Shown in pieces: positions 1 through 12,286 of a stretch of DNA of 35,524 nucleotides. The notes under the pieces were generated by a model. The model made no database searches. It saw nothing but the letters and a program-made list of their open reading frames with translations, and was not told the DNA's origin. Position 1 is the first letter of the stretch; each line of letters begins with the position of its first letter. Origin of the DNA: Nitriliruptorales bacterium (GTDB lineage: Bacteria > Actinomycetota > Nitriliruptoria > Euzebyales > Egibacteraceae); NCBI GenBank assembly GCA_007133145.1, contig SLNF01000250.1, positions 1 through 35,524 on the forward strand, given 5' to 3'. Both the position numbers and the translations under genes were made by a program.

Positions 1-688
1 GCCGAGGTTGGACTGCATGACGTCGCCGGCGCCGGTGACGAGGGGGATGCCGGCCACGAGGCCGCAGGCCTCGGCCTGGCGCGGGCTGAGCTCGCCCACG
101 ACGTCCCAGGGCTTGTTCATCGTCGGGATGAGCTCGCGGGGGATCTTCAGCGCGTCGAGCTGACGGTCCGACCACTGCCGCTTGCGGGGGTCGACGCCGA
201 TGATCCAGCCCGAGGCGCGGCGGCCCAGTCGGTGAAGGCGTCCTCACCGCGGAGCTCGCCGAGTCGGCCGAGGAGGTAGTGCGCGTCGTGGACGACCGAC
301 GTGGCGCGGCCCATGTTCTCGGGCTCGTGGGCCAGGAGCCGCTTCATGAACATCGGCGGCATGTAGGCGCCGGGCTCGGCGTTGCCGGCCTCCTCGTACC
401 ACGGCTTGTCGACGAGGTGGGCGACCTCCTCTGCCTCCTTCTTCGCCCGGGTGTCGAGGAAGCAGATGTAGGGCCTCGTGGGATCCCAGTTCTCGTCGAT
501 GGGCACGAACCCGCAGACGATCCCGCTGCAGGAGATCCCGCGCACCTGTTGGCGGTCGATGCCGCTCGTCGTCACGCACTCCTTGATGCCGTCGACGACG
601 CATCGGGAGAACTGGTCGGGATCCATCTCCGCCCAGCCCGGCTTCGGGAAGTCGATCTTGTGCGGGCGGAATGCCTCGCCACGAGGGT
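1..688 (-). pseudogene. FGGY-family carbohydrate kinase, 3' fragment (interrupted by group II intron at its 5' side, internal frameshift, runs off the window)
   Basis: Minus-strand translation ...EAFRPHKIDFPKPGWAEMDPDQFSRCVVDGIKECVTTSGIDRQQVRGISCSGIVCGFVPID... then, after a 1-nt frame change near 213-225, ...SGWIIGVDPRKRQWSDRQLDALKIPRELIPTMNKPWDVVGELSPRQAEACGLVAGIPLVTGAGDVMQSNLG, typical of FGGY kinases. The first ~30 residues are absent. Confidence 0.75.
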
Positions 689-751
689 GTTGGGTCGGGG
701 ACGGGACGCCGTGCGGTCTTTCGACCGTCGGTCTTCCCGTCCCCGCCCGCC

Positions 752-787
752 GAACCGGACGTGCGCGTCTCACCGCGAATCCGGCTC
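752..787 (-). ncRNA. Group II intron domain V-like hairpin of the outer intron
   Basis: GAGCCGGATTCGCGGTGAGACGCGCACGTCCGGTTC; complementary GAGCCGGA.../...TCCGGTTC arms. Confidence 0.75.
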
Positions 788-805
788 TCCACAAGACCCG
801 AGTGC

Positions 806-1251
806 TCACGCGGCGTCCTCGAATGCCTGCGGCCACGGCGAGGGGACGTCGCTGCCCCGGTAGCGGTAGCGCACGGTGCGCACCGTGGTGGGGTTGAGCA
901 GTTCCACCTTGCCGTCCGTGGGGCACCAGCCTCCTGCGAGGTAGCGGTGGGCGGATCTGGCACAGGTCGCACGGGGATGTGTGGCCCGTAGCCAGCCGAT
1001 CGCCCGCCGCCGGGTGTAGGCGCGCAGGTACTCGAATGTGGCGTAGGACACCCCGTGTTTGAAGTACTTGGCCCACCCTCGCAGGATCGCGTTGAGGCGA
1101 TACAGCAGGGTGTCGTACGGCACGTGCGGTCCGAATCTGCTGCGCTGCCGCACCGTGTCCACGATCCGCAGCACGGACCGTTTCGAGGGGGAGGTGTCGA
1201 CGTAGCGCTTGCTGGTTCCCTTCTGGGTGTGACGCTGGATGCGCCAGCGCC
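806..1251 (-). pseudogene. Group II intron RT/maturase, C-terminal fragment of the outer intron
   Basis: Translation WRIQRHTQKGTSKRYVDTSPSKRSVLRIVDTVRQRSRFGPHVPYDTLLYRLNAILRGWAKYFKHGVSYATFEYLRAYTRRRAIGWLRATHPRA...: end of RT plus maturase (LNAILRGWAKYF) domain. Confidence 0.85.
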
Positions 1252-1289
1252 GGGTAGCCCCGGCGCATTGCTGCGCCGGGGCCCCCTCA

Positions 1290-1324
1290 GAACCGGACGT
1301 GCCCGCTTTCCAGGCATCCGGCTC
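1290..1324 (-). ncRNA. Group II intron domain V hairpin of the inner intron
   Basis: GAGCCGGATGCCTGGAAAGCGGGCACGTCCGGTTC. Confidence 0.82.
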
Positions 1325-3158
1325 AAGCAAGCCGCGAGGGCGACGTGGGTTCTGCTGAAGCCGTTCGCTGGGCTGCTGCCTTGCTATGACGCCGCAGGCA
1401 GGCAGCGTGCACGAGTTGGTACAAGGACCGTCCGCTTGGCCGGCTGTCCGCCCGCTGGAGTTGTTGCTTGCGCAGCGTCCGACGGGCGGTGGTGAACCAT
1501 TGCTCCCACTCGCGTGGGGACTGCGGCTCTTGGTCGGCGTCGAGCAGCGCGTCCCCGCATGCTGGGCAGCGGCCGTCTTGAGCTGCAAGCAGCTTGACGG
1601 TGTGCTGATCCAGCGGTGGGGGCTTGCGTCGACGTCGCCGTTGGGCCCAGTACTCGGCCAGAGCCGGGTCGTCGGGGGACGCCCGTCCCTGAACGGGCAC
1701 GTGACGAACGATCCTGGTCCAGGAGAACTTGGTGAGATAGGCGCCGGTCGCCCGGTCGCCGAACACCCACCGGTCCTGCCTGGCGCGGTTGAACTTGTCG
1801 AAGTAGCGGGCCGCGACCCAGCCCCTCGTCTTGTTCGGGTGCGTGTGGCGCGCCCACCGATAGGTGAGGTGCCACACGTGGTGGTCCAGCCCCGCGAAGA
1901 TGCGGGAGGAGACCACACTCCGGTAGTAGGCCGACCAACCCCGAATGATGGGGTTCAGCCGTTCGATCACCGCTGTGGCGTTGGCCCCTCGCAGGGCCCG
2001 CACCTCGGCGGCGAGCCGTTTCCGGAACCGCTTCACCGACTCCTGGCTCGGTGTGATGAGCAGCTTGGCGCTGCCCCGCCGGTCGACGAAGCGGCGGATG
2101 CTGAACCCCAGGAACGAGAACCCGTCTTCGACGTGGACGACGTTCGTTTTGTCCTCGTTGAAGGAAAGGCCTCTGGGTGTCAGCCACGCCGCCAGCCGCT
2201 GCTTGACCTCTTCGGCCTGCTCACGGCTGTGACACATGGCCACGTAGTCGTCGGCGTACCTCACCAGCACAGGAGCACCACGCACCGTCTCAGCGTCGCT
2301 GCGGGCGCTGTTGCGGTAGCGGACCCCTGCGGCGTGTTCCATCCCGTGCAAGGCCACGTTCAACAGCAGGGGGCTGATCACGCCACCCTGAGGAGTGCCC
2401 TCCTCGGTCGGCGCGAACCGACCCTTGTCGATCACCCCCGCCTTCAACCACGCTCGGATCGCCGCTCTCGCGGGAAAGGCGCCCAGCTGGTCGACGAGAC
2501 GGTCGTGATCAAGGTGGTCGAACGCCCCGGCCAAGTCCGCGTCCAAGATCCAGCGACGCTGCGCGTCACCGCGCAGCGTCTTGAAGATGATCTCGATCGC
2601 GTCATGGCAGCCCCGACCAGGCCGAAACCCATAGGATCTCGGCTCGAACCGGGCCTCCCACTCGGGTTCCAGCGCCTGCTTCACGCGTGCTTGCTGCACG
2701 CGATCGACGATCACGGGAACCCCGAGCGGGCGCTGCTTGCCGTGTCCCTTCGGGATGAAGACCCGCTTGACGGGCAAGGCCTCGCCGGCCGGGGCATGGC
2801 GCTGCAACTGCTGCGCCAGCTCCGCCTGTTCTCGAGCGGTCAGCACGACCTGCCCGTCGATGCCTGCCGTCTTGCGGCCAGCGTTGCGCTGCGTGACCTG
2901 CCGCACGCTCAACAGCGTGTTGCTCCAGCTACGCAGCATCAGCTTCTGCAGATTGCGGACCCGCTTGAGGTCCCCATCCTGCGTCGCCTTGAAGATCCGT
3001 TGCCGCAGTCGCCGTACGCTGTCCTCTTGGGCGCGCCAGTCAATGGCCTCCCAGTCGAGGATCGCGTCCTCTGGTCCGTTCGCTTTGGCGGCTGCCACGG
3101 CCATCGCCGTTGCTGGTCCCGTCATCGCGTCCAACTTGTCCTTCGGTTCCGGCCCCAC
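1323..3158 (-). CDS. Group II intron reverse transcriptase/maturase with C-terminal HNH endonuclease domain
   Basis: 611 aa ORF with IPKGHGKQRPLGVP, YGFRPGRGCHDAI, GTPQGGVISPLLLN, RYADDYVAMC (YADD), maturase LNPIIRGWSAYYR and HNH-type CPACG...HAACLRRH. Confidence 0.95.
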   Translation of the reverse strand: MGPEPKDKLDAMTGPATAMAVAAAKANGPEDAILDWEAIDWRAQEDSVRRLRQRIFKATQDGDLKRVRNLQKLMLRSWSNTLLSVRQVTQRNAGRKTAGIDGQVVLTAREQAELAQQLQRHAPAGEALPVKRVFIPKGHGKQRPLGVPVIVDRVQQARVKQALEPEWEARFEPRSYGFRPGRGCHDAIEIIFKTLRGDAQRRWILDADLAGAFDHLDHDRLVDQLGAFPARAAIRAWLKAGVIDKGRFAPTEEGTPQGGVISPLLLNVALHGMEHAAGVRYRNSARSDAETVRGAPVLVRYADDYVAMCHSREQAEEVKQRLAAWLTPRGLSFNEDKTNVVHVEDGFSFLGFSIRRFVDRRGSAKLLITPSQESVKRFRKRLAAEVRALRGANATAVIERLNPIIRGWSAYYRSVVSSRIFAGLDHHVWHLTYRWARHTHPNKTRGWVAARYFDKFNRARQDRWVFGDRATGAYLTKFSWTRIVRHVPVQGRASPDDPALAEYWAQRRRRRKPPPLDQHTVKLLAAQDGRCPACGDALLDADQEPQSPREWEQWFTTARRTLRKQQLQRADSRPSGRSLYQLVHAACLRRHSKAAAQRTASAEPTSPSRLA

Positions 3159-3793
3159 AGCAGCAGAGCGTCAAAGGCTCACCTGGTCCACGTCAGCTCC
3201 CTTTCGGGCCAGGCAACCGCCTGTATCCGGCCAGTTATGCGCGACGGCCGCTGGAGAGTGCGGCCTTGCGGTCCCGCTTTCCTGTCGCCTTTCGGCCACC
3301 GGCATTCGCTTGTTGGACCATCCTGCGCCCGCCGCGGGAGTTGGGCCTTCCTTACGGTCGGCTTACCGGGCTACGCCCGGACCCCGACGGGGTTTCCACG
3401 TTCCGCACGGTCGAGACCCGACCGGGGAGGGTGCTCTCTGTACCCCGGGGCGACGGTGTTCCCACGACCGGCTCCTAGTCACCGGCCGCCGCTGCCGCGT
3501 TCCAACGACCCGCCCTGCCCTCGGTGCTGCAACCCATCTCCGAGGGGTTCGATCACGAGGCATCAACGAGAATTCGCTTGCGCTCACCCGTCCGGTCTTC
3601 CCCTGGCCTGTAGCCCCCGGATGGAACGGGCGCCCTTGGGCTTTTCCCCCGATGCTTCGAACCCCGCCGTTACCAGCGACGCACGTCAGGGTGGGGACAG
3701 ATCTACGAACACTCATCCGGAGTCCGCTGTCCTCTACATGCCTGACCCTCCAATCAGCGAACCCACTCGTACCGTGCGACCTCGTGTCGCAAC

Positions 3794-3925
3794 GAGGAAG
3801 TCGAACCCCTCGTCGATGTGCACGACGCTGGTCTTGGCCTCCGACAGCCGCAGACCGATCGGCGCCAGGACCTCGGCGAGTTCGTTGCGTAGCTCGCAGG
3901 CGTCGGCCTTGCTGAGGCCCTGGGC
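3794..3925 (-). pseudogene. Group II intron RT internal fragment of the outer intron
   Basis: Translation SKADACELRNELAEVLAPIGLRLSEAKTSVVHIDEGFDFL, the conserved RT block just C-terminal of YADD; the YADD region and everything upstream are lost. Confidence 0.8.
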
Positions 3926-3936
3926 GTGACCGCCCG

Positions 3937-4650
3937 TCAGGACGCGACGTCGCCGACGTCGATGACGTCGCCGGTCGTGATCGACGGGTGGTCGAGCGTG
4001 GCCGCCCCCGCGCTCGCCGCGGCCGCGGGGTCGTTGAGTGCCCGGGTCTCCTTGAGCGTGACGCAGGCGTCGCGGTCGGGGAAGTCGCGGGGGTCGTGCT
4101 CGCGCAGGCTCGCCTGCATCGCCGTGTCGACCTTGCCCGGCGCCACCGAGTAGACCATCACCGGCTCCACGCCGGTCTCCTCGGCGCGGTGGCGCTGCTC
4201 GCACCCGGCGACGCGGGCAAACTGGTCGAGCCCCGCCTTCGCCGCGCAGGACACCCCCAACCGCGGTAGGGGTTCGCTGCGGCGCCCGAGGAGATGTTCG
4301 CGACGACGCGGCGGCACGTCGCCCCCCGGTGTGGCGCAGGACGAGTGAGGTCAGCCGCATCGGGGCCACGAGGTCGACCATGACGTGCAACGTCGTCGCC
4401 TCGGGGGCGAGGTGCTCGACCGCCGCGACGGGGTCGAGGAGGCCGGCGTTGTTGACGAGGGAGAGCCCCTCGGCGTCGGCGAGGTCGACCTGCGCGAAGA
4501 GGTCGTCCATCAAGCCCTCGAGGGCGTCGAGGCGCGCGAGCTCGAAGGGGACGTCGACGACGTGCGCGGCACCGGAGCCGAGCCCGCGCGTGTCGGTCCC
4601 CCCGGTCGCGTGCGGTGCGCTGGGCGCGGCGGCGTGCTCCGCCATCGCGG
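3937..4650 (-). pseudogene. Short-chain dehydrogenase/reductase (sepiapterin/benzil reductase-like), frameshifted and N-terminally incomplete
   Basis: Pieces in three frames: VDVPFELARLDALEGLMDDLF...LSLVNNAGLLDPVAAVEHL...MRLTSLVLRHTGG / RRVVANISSGAAANPYRGWG / VSCAAKAGLDQFARVAG...VYSVAPGKVDTAMQASLREHDPRDFPDRD...TGDVIDVGDVAS*. Confidence 0.75.
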
Positions 4651-4737
4651 CGCGCAGCCTACGCGACGGTGGACGTCGCGGGCACTGGCTTGCGAGCCAG
4701 CCTCCCCGCGGCCGCGTCGCGGTTAGACTCCGACGCG

Positions 4738-4811
4738 GGGCGCTTAGCTCAGGTGGCGAGAGCGCGTGCCTTACAAGCACGAGGTCGCAGGTTCGAGCCC
4801 TGCAGCGCCCA
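4738..4811 (+). tRNA. tRNA-Val (anticodon UAC)
   Basis: GGGCGCT-TA-GCTC-AGGTGGCGA-GAGC-G-CGTGC-CTTACAA-GCACG-AGGTC-GCAGG-TTCGAGC-CCTGC-AGCGCCC-A: full cloverleaf, anticodon loop CUUACAA; CCA not encoded. Confidence 0.95.
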
Positions 4812-5007
4812 CGGTGGGGGACGCCGACGTCTCCGTCCGGCCGTTCTCGCGCCCCCGAGCGACGTGGATGAAGTCGGCTCGGCGGGCTCGCGTGGTGCGG
4901 GTCGAGGGCAACACGCCGCGCACCGCACGGATGCGCACCATGGGTCACCACCGCCGGAGGCGACATCCGACAGCAGCGACTTCGCACATGCGGGTCTTCG
5001 CCGGTCG

Positions 5008-5691
5008 GTGACCGCCCGGACCTGGCGGTCGAACGCCACGGTCGTGTCCGCGAGGCGTCGGCACGACGAGCGACGAGGCCTCACCGACGCTCGATCCCGA
5101 TCGAACGGCGAACCCATCGAGCGCGAACGCCTGGCCACGCTGCTCGAACCTCGGCTCGACATCCCCATGGCCGTGCACGCCGTCGCGTGGGCAGGGTTGG
5201 TGGCCGACGAGCTGATCGCGCCACCCGACCAGCGCGAGGTGCTGGCCGTCGTCAGCACCGTCGTGTCTGCCCGCGGCCAGCTGCTGTCCGTGCTCGAGCG
5301 CGGACGTGAGGGCGCGCTCACCAGCCTCGGCGATGCCCTGTGGTGGTCGGCGAACCTGGGCCTCGCAGGCACCACCGTCGAGGAACCGGTGACGCCGACA
5401 GGCCGCCTGCCGGCCATCGCGCTCTCCGTCTACGCCCTCGTCATCTCCGCCTCCCTGGCCGGGACGATCGGCGCCTACTTCCTCGAAGCGCGGCGGGGCC
5501 GGCATCGCCGCCGCCTCCGACGTCCACGCCGACGTGCCCACCGCCGACACCCACCACCGATACCCCACCGCCGATACCCCACCGCCGACGCCCCACCGCC
5601 GATACCCCAACGCCGACCCCCCACCGGAGCGGGGGTCCGACGTCTCGAGGCGAATCCCATAGCCTTCGCCTTCCGGGGCGACGTGCCTTGA
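5008..5691 (+). CDS. Ion-channel-like membrane protein (pore-helix/S6-like segment, non-canonical selectivity filter); start uncertain
   Basis: Translation LEPRLDIPMAVHAVAWAGLVADELIAP... and LERGREGALTSLGDALWWSANLGLAGTTVEEPVTPTGRLPAIALSVYALVISASLAGTIGAYFLE resembles the P-loop/S6 of voltage-gated-type channels (SxGDALWW...PVTPxGR). Confidence 0.45.
   Translation: MTARTWRSNATVVSARRRHDERRGLTDARSRSNGEPIERERLATLLEPRLDIPMAVHAVAWAGLVADELIAPPDQREVLAVVSTVVSARGQLLSVLERGREGALTSLGDALWWSANLGLAGTTVEEPVTPTGRLPAIALSVYALVISASLAGTIGAYFLEARRGRHRRRLRRPRRRAHRRHPPPIPHRRYPTADAPPPIPQRRPPTGAGVRRLEANPIAFAFRGDVP
5540..5622. repeat. 14-bp tandem repeat, about 6 copies (consensus ACCGCCGATACCCC)
   Basis: accgccgacaccc / accaccgatacccc / accgccgatacccc / accgccgacgcccc / accgccgatacccc / aacgccgacccccc. 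Confidence 0.9.
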
Positions 5692-5893
5692 CCGCTCCTC
5701 GACTTCGCCGGCCCGGGCACCGTGCGCTTCGCCGAGTGGGAGCAGGACAGCGGCGACGTTCGCCTCGAGCACGTCCTCGCCGACGCCTACCAGGCATGCG
5801 GCATCGTCGTCCGAGCCCGTGCCGCCCTCCAAGTGCGGGAGCTCGAGGCCCCCGCGGGGTGCCGTCCCAGGCGGGCGGAGGCGGCACGCCTCG

Positions 5894-5928
5894 CCCGGCG
5901 GGCCCCGGCTCCGCGGGGGCCCGCCGGG
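5894..5928. terminator. Strong 13-bp inverted repeat, probable terminator downstream of the SGNH gene
   Basis: CCCGGCGGGCCCC-ggctccgcg-GGGGCCCGCCGGG, directly next to the minus-strand stop at 5929. Confidence 0.65.
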
Positions 5929-7041
5929 CTAGCCGTCGGGAGCCCACCGCTCCAGGACCGCCTCGGCGAGGAGCGTGTCGACGACGAGGCGGCCGCCGTC
6001 GGGGGTGAGGTGGATGCCGTCGTCGCGACGCATCCGGTCGACCCCGCCGTCGGGGCCCTCGAGGTAGGTCGCGTAGGACCCGTCGTCGGCGAGGAGCTCA
6101 CGGATCGGCAGATGCGTCGTGTCGGCGCGGGCTTCGGCCGCCTCGGCGTAGGCGGCGTCGAGCTCGGCCATCGCCGCGTCGAAGTCTGGGTCCTGCATCA
6201 CCGGCAGGCCGAGCCACAGCACCTCGGCGCCCTCGCCGGTCAGCGCGTCGAGGAGGTCGTCGACGCGGCGGCGGTACTCCTCGACCCAGCCGTCGTCGCG
6301 GCGGAGGATGACCTCGTCGCCGCGCATGTCCTGGTCATCGTTGCCGCCGAGCATGACGACGACGACGTCGGGGTCCTCCGCGGCGACGGTGGCCTCGGCA
6401 TGCGCCGGCCAGTCGAAGTAGTCGGGTCGGGCCAGACCGGTCGAGTACTGCGGCTCGGCGGTGACCTCCGCGGGCAGCCGCCCCTCCAGCGCCGAGGACA
6501 GCGGCGCGGCGAGCGGCTCGACGAGCGAGTCGCCGGCGACCCACACCGTGAGCGGGTCCTCCTCGCTCGGGGCACGCCGTGGGGTGGTCGCCTCCGCCTC
6601 CTCCGCGCCGTCGGTGCCGCCCCCGTCGTTGGCGTCGGCGTCGTCGTCGGTCGTGGCCGCCTCGGCGTGGTCGCCGCCCGCCGCCCGCTCGTCGATCCGC
6701 CCGCCGGGGGCGGCCGGCTCGCGGACCGTCGGTCGGAACCAGCCGCCGATGCCGTCGACGAGCCAGGCGTGCGCGCCGCCGAGCCCGGTCACCTCGGAGA
6801 GCGTCTCGACGGGCCCGACGACAGCGACGGCGACGCTGCGCTGCCAGCCGAAGGGCTGACGCTCGGCGGTGGCCGCGAGCGACGAGGCGTTCATGATCGC
6901 GCCGAGCAGCAGCGCGCCGAGGAGCACGGCGACGGTCTGCGCCGGGCTCAGCCGTCGCCGCGTGGCCGCTCGGTCAGCCTCGCCTGAACCGGTGGCGGCT
7001 CGCCGCGAGGACGCGTTGCGGGGCTCGGTGTCGGTGCTCAT
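5929..7041 (-). CDS. DUF459/SGNH-hydrolase family protein, membrane anchored
   Basis: N-terminal TM; VWVAGDSLVEPLAAPLSSAL, VVVVMLGGNDDQDM, DDGIHLTPDGGRLV (GDS, GxND, DxxH motifs). Confidence 0.85.
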   Translation of the reverse strand: MSTDTEPRNASSRRAATGSGEADRAATRRRLSPAQTVAVLLGALLLGAIMNASSLAATAERQPFGWQRSVAVAVVGPVETLSEVTGLGGAHAWLVDGIGGWFRPTVREPAAPGGRIDERAAGGDHAEAATTDDDADANDGGGTDGAEEAEATTPRRAPSEEDPLTVWVAGDSLVEPLAAPLSSALEGRLPAEVTAEPQYSTGLARPDYFDWPAHAEATVAAEDPDVVVVMLGGNDDQDMRGDEVILRRDDGWVEEYRRRVDDLLDALTGEGAEVLWLGLPVMQDPDFDAAMAELDAAYAEAAEARADTTHLPIRELLADDGSYATYLEGPDGGVDRMRRDDGIHLTPDGGRLVVDTLLAEAVLERWAPDG

Positions 7042-7093
7042 CGCACGTGCCAGGATCGCAGCGTGGCGCCGGAGTCTCCGGGGGTCCGGCCCA

Positions 7094-8530
7094 TCAGAAC
7101 TGGAAGTAGATGAACGGGGCGACGCCCGGTGGGCCGAGGGCGTCGATGACGACGAGGGCGCCGGCGAGCGCGAGGGCCTGCCCGGCCAGCGGCAGGCGGC
7201 TGAACTGCGCCTGGATCGCCTCGCCGGTGCCCTCGGGGAGGAACTGCACGGCGATCGTCGCGACGATGACCGCGAGCACCGGCACGGTGACGAGCGGCGC
7301 GGGACCCGGCGCGGTGGCCAGCCGGGTGAGCATCGTCGTGGCGACCTCGAAGGACTCGGCGCGGAAGAAGACCCAGCCGAGGCAGACGACGTGGAAGGTC
7401 ACGAGCCAGCGCCGTGTCTCGATCCACCACGGCTCGAGGGGGGCGAGGCCGGGCCGGCGCGGCGCCGGCCGGGCGCGGCGGCGCTCCTCGAGGAAGCGCT
7501 CGAGCGCGAGCCAGCCGCCGTGCAGGGCGCCCCAGGCGACGAACGTCCAGGCCGCCCCGTGCCACAGCCCCCCGAGCAGCATCGTGAGCAGGAGGTTGCG
7601 GTACGTGCGCGCGCGCCCGTGCGCCGACCCGCCCAGCGGGATGTAGAGATAGTCGCGCAGCCAGCGCGACAGCGTCATGTGCCACCGACGCCAGAAGTCC
7701 CGCAGCGTCCTCGCCGCGTAGGGGCGGTTGAAGTTGTCGGGGAAGGTGAACCCCAGCAGCATCGCGCAGCCGATGGCGATGTCGGTGTAGCCGGAGAAAT
7801 CGGTGTAGATCTGCGCGGCGTAGCCGTAGACCGCGATGAGGATCTCCCCCGAGGAGTACGCCGAGGGGTTGGCGAAGACCTCGTCGACGATCGCGCTCGC
7901 GAGGAAGCTCGCGACGACGACTTTCTTGAACAGCCCCGCGGTGATGAGGCCGAAGGCGCGTCCGGTGTCGAGGACCTGCCCGGCGCGCGTCGCGAGCTGC
8001 GGCAGGAACTCCCGGGCGCGGACGATCGGCCCGGCCACGAGCTGGGGGAAGAAGGCGAGGAAGACCGCGACGTCGAGGTGGCTCGCTGGCTCGAGCTCGC
8101 GGCGACCGATGTCGACGACGTAGCTGATCGCCTGGAAGGTGAAGAACGAGATCCCCACCGGCAGGACGATCTCGAGCAGCGGGAACGGCGAGGACACCCC
8201 GAAGCGCGCGAGGAGGTTGGCCATCGAGGCGACGAAGAAGCCGTAGTACTTGAACCAGCCGAGCACCGCGAGGTCGCCAGCCACCGTCCAGCGAACGAGG
8301 GTGCGGCGGCGTTCGTCATCGTCGGCGGCGGCGATGCGCAGCGCCATCACTTGGTTGAAGACCGTGACCCCCGCGAGCAGGAAGAGGAAGCGGGGGTCCC
8401 AGGCGGCGTAGAAGACATAGCTCGCCCCGAGCATGAAGAGCTTCCAGCGCACCGGTTGCGGCGTCAGCAGCCAACTCGCGACGAGCACGACCGCGAAGAA
8501 GATCGCGTACTGCACCGTCGGGAAGAGCAT
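7094..8530 (-). CDS. MBOAT-family O-acyltransferase (AlgI-like)
   Basis: 478 aa polytopic protein; GISFFTFQAISYVVDIGRRELEP, FPQLVAGPIVRAREFLPQL, DFWRRWHMTLSRWLRDYLYIPLGGS, LLGGLWHGAAWTFVAWGALHG. Confidence 0.95.
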   Translation of the reverse strand: MLFPTVQYAIFFAVVLVASWLLTPQPVRWKLFMLGASYVFYAAWDPRFLFLLAGVTVFNQVMALRIAAADDDERRRTLVRWTVAGDLAVLGWFKYYGFFVASMANLLARFGVSSPFPLLEIVLPVGISFFTFQAISYVVDIGRRELEPASHLDVAVFLAFFPQLVAGPIVRAREFLPQLATRAGQVLDTGRAFGLITAGLFKKVVVASFLASAIVDEVFANPSAYSSGEILIAVYGYAAQIYTDFSGYTDIAIGCAMLLGFTFPDNFNRPYAARTLRDFWRRWHMTLSRWLRDYLYIPLGGSAHGRARTYRNLLLTMLLGGLWHGAAWTFVAWGALHGGWLALERFLEERRRARPAPRRPGLAPLEPWWIETRRWLVTFHVVCLGWVFFRAESFEVATTMLTRLATAPGPAPLVTVPVLAVIVATIAVQFLPEGTGEAIQAQFSRLPLAGQALALAGALVVIDALGPPGVAPFIYFQF

Positions 8531-8767
8531 CGCACCGTCAGCGAGGGCGGCCTGCCCCGGCGCGGAGATGGCACCGAGCGCCCCATCGGGGAGGTCGACG
8601 GCAGTCTACGCAGACGGCTCGTCCACGCGGGCAGGCCTCGACGGCGTCAGCCTCACGGCCCGACGAGTCGGCGGGCGCTGAGCGTGGGTACCGCGGCGGG
8701 GCCCGGCGCTCATGGCAGTCTGCGCGGATGCGGGGCGCGACAGCGGGCCCCCCGGGATGGAGGCGAC

Positions 8768-9433
8768 GTGGGCGCTGAGCAGGCCGACCTGCGCGTGCTG
8801 CGGGTCTTCACCGACGCCGACGGCAGCGGCGGCAACCCCCTGGGGGTGCATCTCGCCGGCGCCGCGGTCCCACCGGTCCACCGTCAGGCCGAGGCCGCCC
8901 GTCTGGGCTTCAGCGAGACGGTCTTCGTCGACGACCCCGAGCGCGGCGTCGTCGACATCCGGACGCCGACGATGCCGCTGCCCTTCGCCGGGCATCCCCT
9001 CGTGGGCGTCGGCTGGCTGCTCGCGCGGGAGGGCGCCGGCCCTGCCGTGCTGCGCCCGCCCGCAGGTGCGGTGCCGACCTGGACGGAGGGCCCGCGGCGC
9101 TGGATCCGTGGGCGCGCCGCGTGGGCCCCGCCGATGGTCTTGTGGGCCTGCGCCTCACCCGCCGAGGTCGAATGCCTGGAGGGGCCCCCGCCGGGTGTGG
9201 GCTTCGCCTACTGCTGGGCCTACCTCGACGAGGAGCGCGGGCTCGTGCGCGCCCGGGCCTTCGCCGAGGAGGCCGGCATCGCCGAGGACGAGGCGACCGG
9301 CTCGGCGGCGCTGCGCCTCGCCGCCGCCCTCGACCGGCCCCTCACGATCCGCCAGGGGGCCGGCTCGGAGCTGCGTGCACGACCCGGACCCGCCGGCACG
9401 ACCGAGGTCGGCGGGCTCGTCGGCTTGGCCTGA
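8768..9433 (+). CDS. PhzF family epimerase/isomerase-like protein (short form, GTG start)
   Basis: LRVFTDADGSGGNPLGV, LGFSETVFVDD, MPLPFAGHPLVGVGWLL, DEATGSAALRLAA. Confidence 0.85.
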   Translation: MGAEQADLRVLRVFTDADGSGGNPLGVHLAGAAVPPVHRQAEAARLGFSETVFVDDPERGVVDIRTPTMPLPFAGHPLVGVGWLLAREGAGPAVLRPPAGAVPTWTEGPRRWIRGRAAWAPPMVLWACASPAEVECLEGPPPGVGFAYCWAYLDEERGLVRARAFAEEAGIAEDEATGSAALRLAAALDRPLTIRQGAGSELRARPGPAGTTEVGGLVGLA

Positions 9434-11909: not shown

Positions 11910-12286
11910 GCGAGGGGAGTTGGCCAGGCGACCGCGGCGGCGCGAGCCGTCGAGGAAAGTCCGGACTCCACAGGGCACGACGCTGGGTAACCCCCAGGCG
12001 CGGTGACGCGCGGGAGCAGCCAACAGAGAGCAGACCGCCGAACGGCGCCCGCCAGGGCGTGCGTGGTGAGGGTGAAAGGGTGCGGTAAGAGCGCACCGGC
12101 GTCGGCGGTGACGTCGACGGCCAGGGAGCCCCGTCGGGAGCAAGGCCAAGCAGGCGCGTCGAGGTGGCCCGCCAAGCGCCAGGTAGGCCGCACGAGCCGG
12201 ACGGTGACGTTCGGCCCAGACAGATGGTCGCCGCCCGGCGGGATGCCGCCGGGCACAGAATCCGGCTTACCGGCCGACTCCCCTCG
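11910..12286 (+). ncRNA. rnpB: RNase P RNA component (bacterial class A)
   Basis: GAGGAAAGTCCGGACTCCACAGGGC, ACAGAGAGCAGACCGCC, GGTGAAAGGGTGCGGTAAGAGCGCACCG, ACAGAATCCGGCTTACCGGCCGACTCCCCTC; P1 pairing gaggggagttggcc / ggccgactcccctc. Confidence 0.95.

What the first reader, a model, noticed from the sequence alone, without database searches (positions are those of the whole stretch)
689..3925. Group II intron nested inside the RT ORF of another group II intron (twintron-like)
On the minus strand an RT reads ...KTSVVHIDEGFDFL (ends ~3794), is interrupted by ~2.54 kb carrying its own RT-maturase-HNH ORF, domain V and domain VI, then resumes as WRIQRHTQKGTSKRYV... (from ~1251) to a normal maturase C-terminus, domain V and domain VI. 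Removing about 1252-3792 rejoins FDFL and WRIQRH in one frame (FDFL-G-R-WRIQRH), in the block that normally reads GFDFLG-x-RIQR. Nested group II introns are known in organelles, some archaea and cyanobacteria; an actinobacterial-type example with an RT ORF as the target is worth documenting.
Basis: partly seen in the sequence, partly recalled or inferred. Interest (0 to 1): 0.8.

Follow-up and report, generated by a model that had tools for sequence, protein, structure and literature searches.

The report
Group II intron inside dead intron
A self-splicing mobile intron has jumped into the reverse-transcriptase gene of another mobile intron, but only the last third of that second intron is left, so this is a real nested insertion in a dead relic and not a working intron-within-intron.

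Summary
The nesting is real. A complete 2,544-nt group II intron (3792..1249, minus strand) interrupts the Gly codon of the GFDFL^G motif of another group II intron's RT. A relative in the same family (G003) has the uninterrupted RT with exactly the predicted empty site. Domain I (consensus fold of 149 pairs, 85 with double changes), RT ORF, DV and DVI are recognisable. EBS1/EBS2 pair with the flanking RT sequence, so insertion by retrohoming is well supported. The nearest relative (Streptomyces plasmid, support 100/98) sits at the same codon of another RT, and 6 of 22 copies examined lie inside other group II introns.

The "twintron" reading fails. Only the last third of the outer intron survives (RT from just after the YADD block, DV, DVI). 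Synteny with a same-genus genome shows a deletion that removed its 5' domains, the RT N-terminus, a neighbouring gene and the start of the kinase gene it had entered, so it cannot splice. The inner intron begins with U instead of G, with an A-to-G change at the penultimate base; a U start has precedent. Nested bacterial group II introns are known: a new member of a known kind.

The parts
1249..3792 (-). Inner group II intron, 2,544 nt, complete; starts UUGCGACACG, ends CUACCCGGC
   Evidence: Empty site in G003; ends of relatives
3193..3792 (-). Inner intron 5' ribozyme region (domains I to III)
   Evidence: Consensus fold of 16 relatives, 149 pairs, 85 with double changes; RF02012 match at 3632-3720
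3472..3478 (-). EBS1 (CTAGGAG) in a hairpin loop of domain I
   Evidence: Exon-intron complementarity scan over 20 introns
3548..3552 (-). EBS2 (TCGAA); complementarity to the exon extends over 3542-3552
3793..3799 (-). IBS1 (TTCCTCG) in the outer RT
3801..3805 (-). IBS2 (TTCGA) in the outer RT
1323..3158 (-). Inner intron-encoded protein, 611 aa: RT plus maturase, C-terminal En-like region without HNH histidines
1249..1326 (-). Inner intron domains V and VI
   Evidence: RF00029, 50.0 bits
3793..3915 (-). Outer RT, upstream fragment, ending ...HIDEGFDFL plus the first base of the Gly codon
   Evidence: 84% nt identity to L110:8476-8593
806..1248 (-). Outer RT, downstream fragment (thumb/maturase) to the stop codon
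   Evidence: 88% nt identity to L110; GIIM domain
689..789 (-). Outer intron domains V and VI
   Evidence: RF00029, 41.2 bits
3916..3943 (-). Deletion junction between the SDR gene end and the truncated outer intron
   Evidence: Comparison with G018 L143 and G003 L110
1..688 (-). FGGY-kinase gene, 3' exon of the outer intron; lacks its first 25 or so codons and has a frame change
   Evidence: 89-93% aa identity to G018 kinase in two frames
3944..4601 (-). SDR gene with frame changes, upstream flank
   Evidence: 87% nt identity to G018 L143; tblastn in three frames

Best explanation
An intact and probably once mobile group II intron retrohomed into the GFDFL^G codon of a group II RT gene. Shown: exact insertion and empty site, complete ribozyme domains and RT frame, EBS1/EBS2 complementarity to the exon, and a sister intron at the same codon of another RT. 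Inferred: that insertion was by RNA-guided reverse splicing and reverse transcription. The interrupted RT belonged to a second group II intron that had itself entered an FGGY kinase gene at a YADD-encoding stretch. A deletion, before or after the inner insertion, removed the front two thirds of that outer intron together with an upstream gene and the kinase start. Splicing of the inner intron would restore the outer reading frame but not a whole RT, and the outer intron cannot splice.
For: Empty site in G003 without a base gained or lost. Conserved ends in relatives. Covarying domain I-III fold and Rfam matches. RT motifs intact and dN/dS 0.26 against the sister intron. EBS/IBS: own exons score 138.5 against a shuffled mean of 82.1, not reached in 20,000 shuffles. 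Sister intron L137 at the same codon and phase. Truncation of the outer intron and synteny SDR - quinone oxidoreductase - kinase in G018.
Against: No RNA or mobility data. The first base is U where all relatives have G, which could impair splicing. EBS1 has one mismatch (position -2) to this exon and fits the L137 exon better. Order of deletion and insertion is not resolved. The genome is a fragmented metagenome assembly.
Confidence: 0.88

Rival explanations
1. A functional twintron: both introns splice in sequence, with the outer intron's missing 5' domains lying elsewhere and acting in trans.
For: The inner insertion is in frame, and the outer DV/DVI and RT C-terminal part are preserved. Trans-splicing group II introns exist in organelles (general knowledge).
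Against: No other piece of the outer intron in the assembly; the kinase start is also gone and the kinase has a frame change; outer 3' part dN/dS 0.60.
Confidence: 0.03
2. A misassembly joined unrelated contigs, so the truncation of the outer intron (or the nesting) is an artefact.
For: Fragmented MAG, 359 contigs; repeats often break assemblies.
Against: SDR and kinase lie in the same order and orientation 1.6 kb apart in G018, and a chance join would not restore this. The inner junctions match an independent empty site to the base. No second copy of either intron in the assembly that could have caused a join.
Confidence: 0.06
3. The outer relic arose as a 5'-truncated retrohoming product (incomplete cDNA) with loss of upstream target DNA, and not by a later deletion of a full intron.
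For: Truncation is at the 5' side, as expected from reverse transcription starting at the 3' end; the L137 host RT is also 5'-truncated.
Against: 1.58 kb of upstream DNA including a whole gene is missing as well, more simply explained by one deletion. Sequence alone cannot decide.
Confidence: 0.25
4. The inner intron is now inactive because of its U start, and is itself a remnant.
For: All 21 relatives have G at position 1.
Against: The penultimate base changed too (A to G), which may compensate; TeI4h starts with U and prefers it for mobility (PMC2882425); RT under purifying selection.
Confidence: 0.3

Closest known systems
Thermosynechococcus elongatus twintrons (TeI3 introns in TeI4 introns; PMC2882425)
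   Same: Group II intron inserted in the ORF region of another group II intron; [quoted passage not shown] one T. elongatus intron (TeI4h) also starts with U
   Different: There the inner introns are ORF-less and sit between two start codons near the RT N-terminus, and the outer introns are complete; here the inner intron encodes its own RT, the site is the GFDFL^G codon, and the outer intron is a relic
Methanosarcina acetivorans nested group II introns (reviewed in PMC4424553)
   Different: Up to five nested introns in one genome there; here one level, actinobacterial lineages
Trichodesmium erythraeum twintron (PMC4649490)
   Same: Two distantly related RT-encoding group II introns, one in the other
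   Different: There both splice in vivo and restore a host mRNA; here the outer 5' half and the host gene start are missing
Inner-family copy on Streptomyces sp. YIM 121038 plasmid NZ_CP030772.1 (L137)
   Same: Sister intron (80% nt identity), same EBS1, same GFDFL^G codon of an RT gene
   Different: Starts with G; its host RT belongs to its own wider family and keeps an HNH motif

Membership tests
Mobile group II intron (inner element) | Domain V and domain VI at the 3' end | tested here: met
   RF00029, 50.0 bits, 1249-1326
Mobile group II intron (inner element) | 5' domain I with EBS1 and EBS2 matching the exon | tested here: met
Mobile group II intron (inner element) | GUGYG 5' end | tested here: not met
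   UUGCG: first base U where all relatives have G; a U start is accepted in TeI4h (PMC2882425), so this does not exclude membership
Mobile group II intron (inner element) | Intron-encoded RT/maturase with YADD | tested here: met
   TIGR04416 337 bits against a cut-off of 300; RVT_1, GIIM; YADD present
Mobile group II intron (inner element) | C-terminal HNH endonuclease (part of many, not all, members) | tested here: not met
   No HNH match; histidines absent in the actinobacterial family
Mobile group II intron (inner element) | Precise insertion without target duplication | tested here: met
   Empty site in G003
Mobile group II intron (inner element) | Splicing and retrohoming activity | not testable with these tools
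   Needs RNA and mobility assays
Twintron (intron within a spliceable intron) | Inner intron lies within another group II intron | tested here: met
   Both RT fragments and the outer DV/DVI match one intron in G003
Twintron (intron within a spliceable intron) | Outer intron has its 5' splice site and domains I-III | tested here: not met
   Homology starts at about 3915; front two thirds absent here and elsewhere in the assembly
Twintron (intron within a spliceable intron) | Sequential splicing in vivo | not testable with these tools
   RT-PCR needed

The most novel reading that the evidence does not exclude
Actinobacterial group II introns form a network of intron-on-intron parasites in which different lineages have exon-binding sites for conserved protein motifs of rival RT genes (GFDFL^G for the inner intron and its sister, YADD for the outer family, PQGG in L163), so that RT genes themselves are self-renewing homing sites.
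Probability: 0.3. Interest if true: 0.6.

Novelty: new member of a known kind. Interest (0 to 1): 0.42.

Why it matters
It shows that intron-into-intron homing, reported mainly from cyanobacteria and one archaeon, recurs in an actinobacterial intron family (6 of 22 copies examined), and that one sublineage is found at the same RT codon in two genera and two host RT families. L163 on a Streptomyces plasmid is a better experimental twintron than this window: with the inner intron taken out in the computer, its outer intron is full length with a 613-aa RT frame. The paired change of first and penultimate base is a testable case of interaction between the intron ends.

Tried and rejected
The first genome-contig query used the outer C-terminus in a wrong frame and found nothing. 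Boundary alternatives: a GTTGCG start at 3793 would need one insertion plus one deletion; removing 1252-3792 leaves a codon that the empty site lacks. A search for further copies at the same motif gave only chance matches. No match among phages. EBS assignment for the outer intron gave several equal candidates and is not claimed. The quinone oxidoreductase gene of G018 is not in the window and has only distant paralogs elsewhere in the assembly, as expected after a deletion in a 76%-complete genome, though not proof. My first assumption that the 21 relatives are a random sample is wrong: they were picked by similarity, so 6 of 22 is not a rate.

Full report
What is there. The window is a whole contig (C88) of a 2.44-Mb, 76%-complete metagenome-assembled genome. 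On the minus strand, from about 4601 downward: a short-chain dehydrogenase (SDR) gene with frame changes, an RT fragment (about 3915-3793), a complete group II intron (3792-1249), the rest of the same RT (1248-806), domain V/VI of the outer intron (789-689), and an FGGY kinase without its start (688-1).

The insertion is exact. A complete genome of the same family (G003) carries the uninterrupted outer RT. Its DNA matches the window up to 3793 (84%) and from 1248 (88%) with no base between: TTCGACTTCCTCG^GCTGGCGC, read FDFLGWRIQRH. The relatives start GTGCGAC[AG]CG; 20 end CTACCCGAC and one ends CTACCCGCC.

It is a complete group II intron. Sixteen introns give a consensus fold of the 5' region with 149 pairs, 85 of them with at least one double change. 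RF02012 (33.5 bits, E 3.7e-5, just under its cut-off) and RF00029 (50 bits) match the two ends. The ORF has RVT_N, RVT_1 and GIIM and the RT motifs including YADD, but the C-terminal domain lacks the HNH histidines throughout the actinobacterial family, while the host RT in L137 still has them. dN/dS against the sister intron is 0.26.

It fits its target by base pairing. A scan over all alignment columns and exon offsets singled out two positions in the expected order, EBS2 then EBS1 (means 0.645 and 0.62 against a background of 0.32, s.d. 0.054). The pairing sum over 20 introns was not reached in 20,000 shuffles of exons among introns (the two positions were chosen on the same data, so this overstates significance somewhat). 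The window intron scores 10 of 11 on its own exon; of the other 19 exons, only that of its sister L137 scores as well (10.5) and the next best is 6. Complementarity at EBS2 runs over 11 nt; the CCCC part is conserved in the family, so the extension may be incidental.

A lineage found twice at one RT motif. The sister intron (Streptomyces plasmid NZ_CP030772.1; support 100/98) sits at GATTCGACTTCCTGG^GGTTC, the same codon and phase, in an RT of its own wider family. Other inner-family copies lie in the PQGG^V codons of a same-family RT (L163; the resolved outer intron is 2,557 nt with a 613-aa ORF), within two complete outer-type introns (L138, L153) and at the DV/DVI border of another intron (L142); one is tandem at the end of an identical copy (L162). 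Others lie in IS4 or IS256 transposase genes. So 6 of 22 copies examined are nested; these were picked by similarity, not at random.

The outer element is dead. About 34% of the 2,033-nt homologous intron is present and nothing else of it is in the assembly. The same-genus genome G018 has SDR, quinone oxidoreductase and intact kinase in this order; the window lacks about 1.58 kb between the SDR end and kinase codon 26. This shared synteny makes a chimeric contig unlikely. The kinase in G018 reads TACGCAGACGATTCG^AACCTCGTG (YADDS^N), in register with TACGCCGACGATCTC^GTCGTG, the YADD site where the G003 relative of the outer intron sits in a third RT gene. The outer intron probably took a chance YADD-like stretch for its usual RT target (inference). 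dN/dS of the outer 3' part is 0.60.

The unusual ends. The window intron starts with U where all 21 relatives have G, and its penultimate base is G where 20 have A and one has C. That the first and penultimate nucleotides of group II introns interact is from my own knowledge (yeast work of the 1990s); no paper on it was found in the held library. TeI4h starts with U and prefers it for mobility (PMC2882425). Impaired splicing is possible but not implied.

Verdict. A real nested insertion, best explained by retrohoming into a group II RT gene; not a working twintron. Comparable nested introns are published for Thermosynechococcus, Trichodesmium and Methanosarcina (PMC2882425, PMC4649490, PMC4424553). 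A literature search for twintrons with Streptomyces found no dedicated report, but the library is incomplete.

Noticed in passing
L163 (NZ_CP108391.1, Streptomyces sp. NBC_01320), about 1409-6484: A complete nested pair of same-family group II introns; the inner one interrupts the PQGG^V codons of the outer RT, and the resolved outer intron keeps a 613-aa frame. Annotated only as separate RT N-terminal and maturase proteins.
   Followed up: partly
L110 (G003), 7120-9152: The intact homolog of the outer intron sits in the YADD codons of a third group II RT gene, in the same register as the YADD-like stretch of the kinase gene entered by the outer intron of the window.
   Followed up: partly
window 1326-1600 (-) and relatives L022, L137-L163: The C-terminal endonuclease-like region of the actinobacterial inner-intron family lacks the HNH histidines in all copies examined, although the family is evidently mobile.
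   Followed up: partly
L162 (NZ_CP109405.1), 206-5313: Two introns encoding an identical protein in tandem; the second begins directly at the 3' end (CTACCCGAC) of the first.
   Followed up: no
L139, L148, L157, L161: A sublineage of the same intron family inserted at a YHERW-encoding stretch of IS4-type transposase genes, with matching EBS1.
   Followed up: partly
L030 (Hormoscilla), about 3833-7768: A cyanobacterial relative lies in antisense orientation within another group II RT gene, splitting it near RT residue 340.
   Followed up: no
window 3944-4601 and 1-688 (-): SDR and kinase genes both carry frame changes against G018; pseudogenes or assembly errors.
   Followed up: partly
window 4738-4812 (+) and 11916-12285 (+): tRNA-Val(TAC) gene and RNase P class A RNA.
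   Followed up: no
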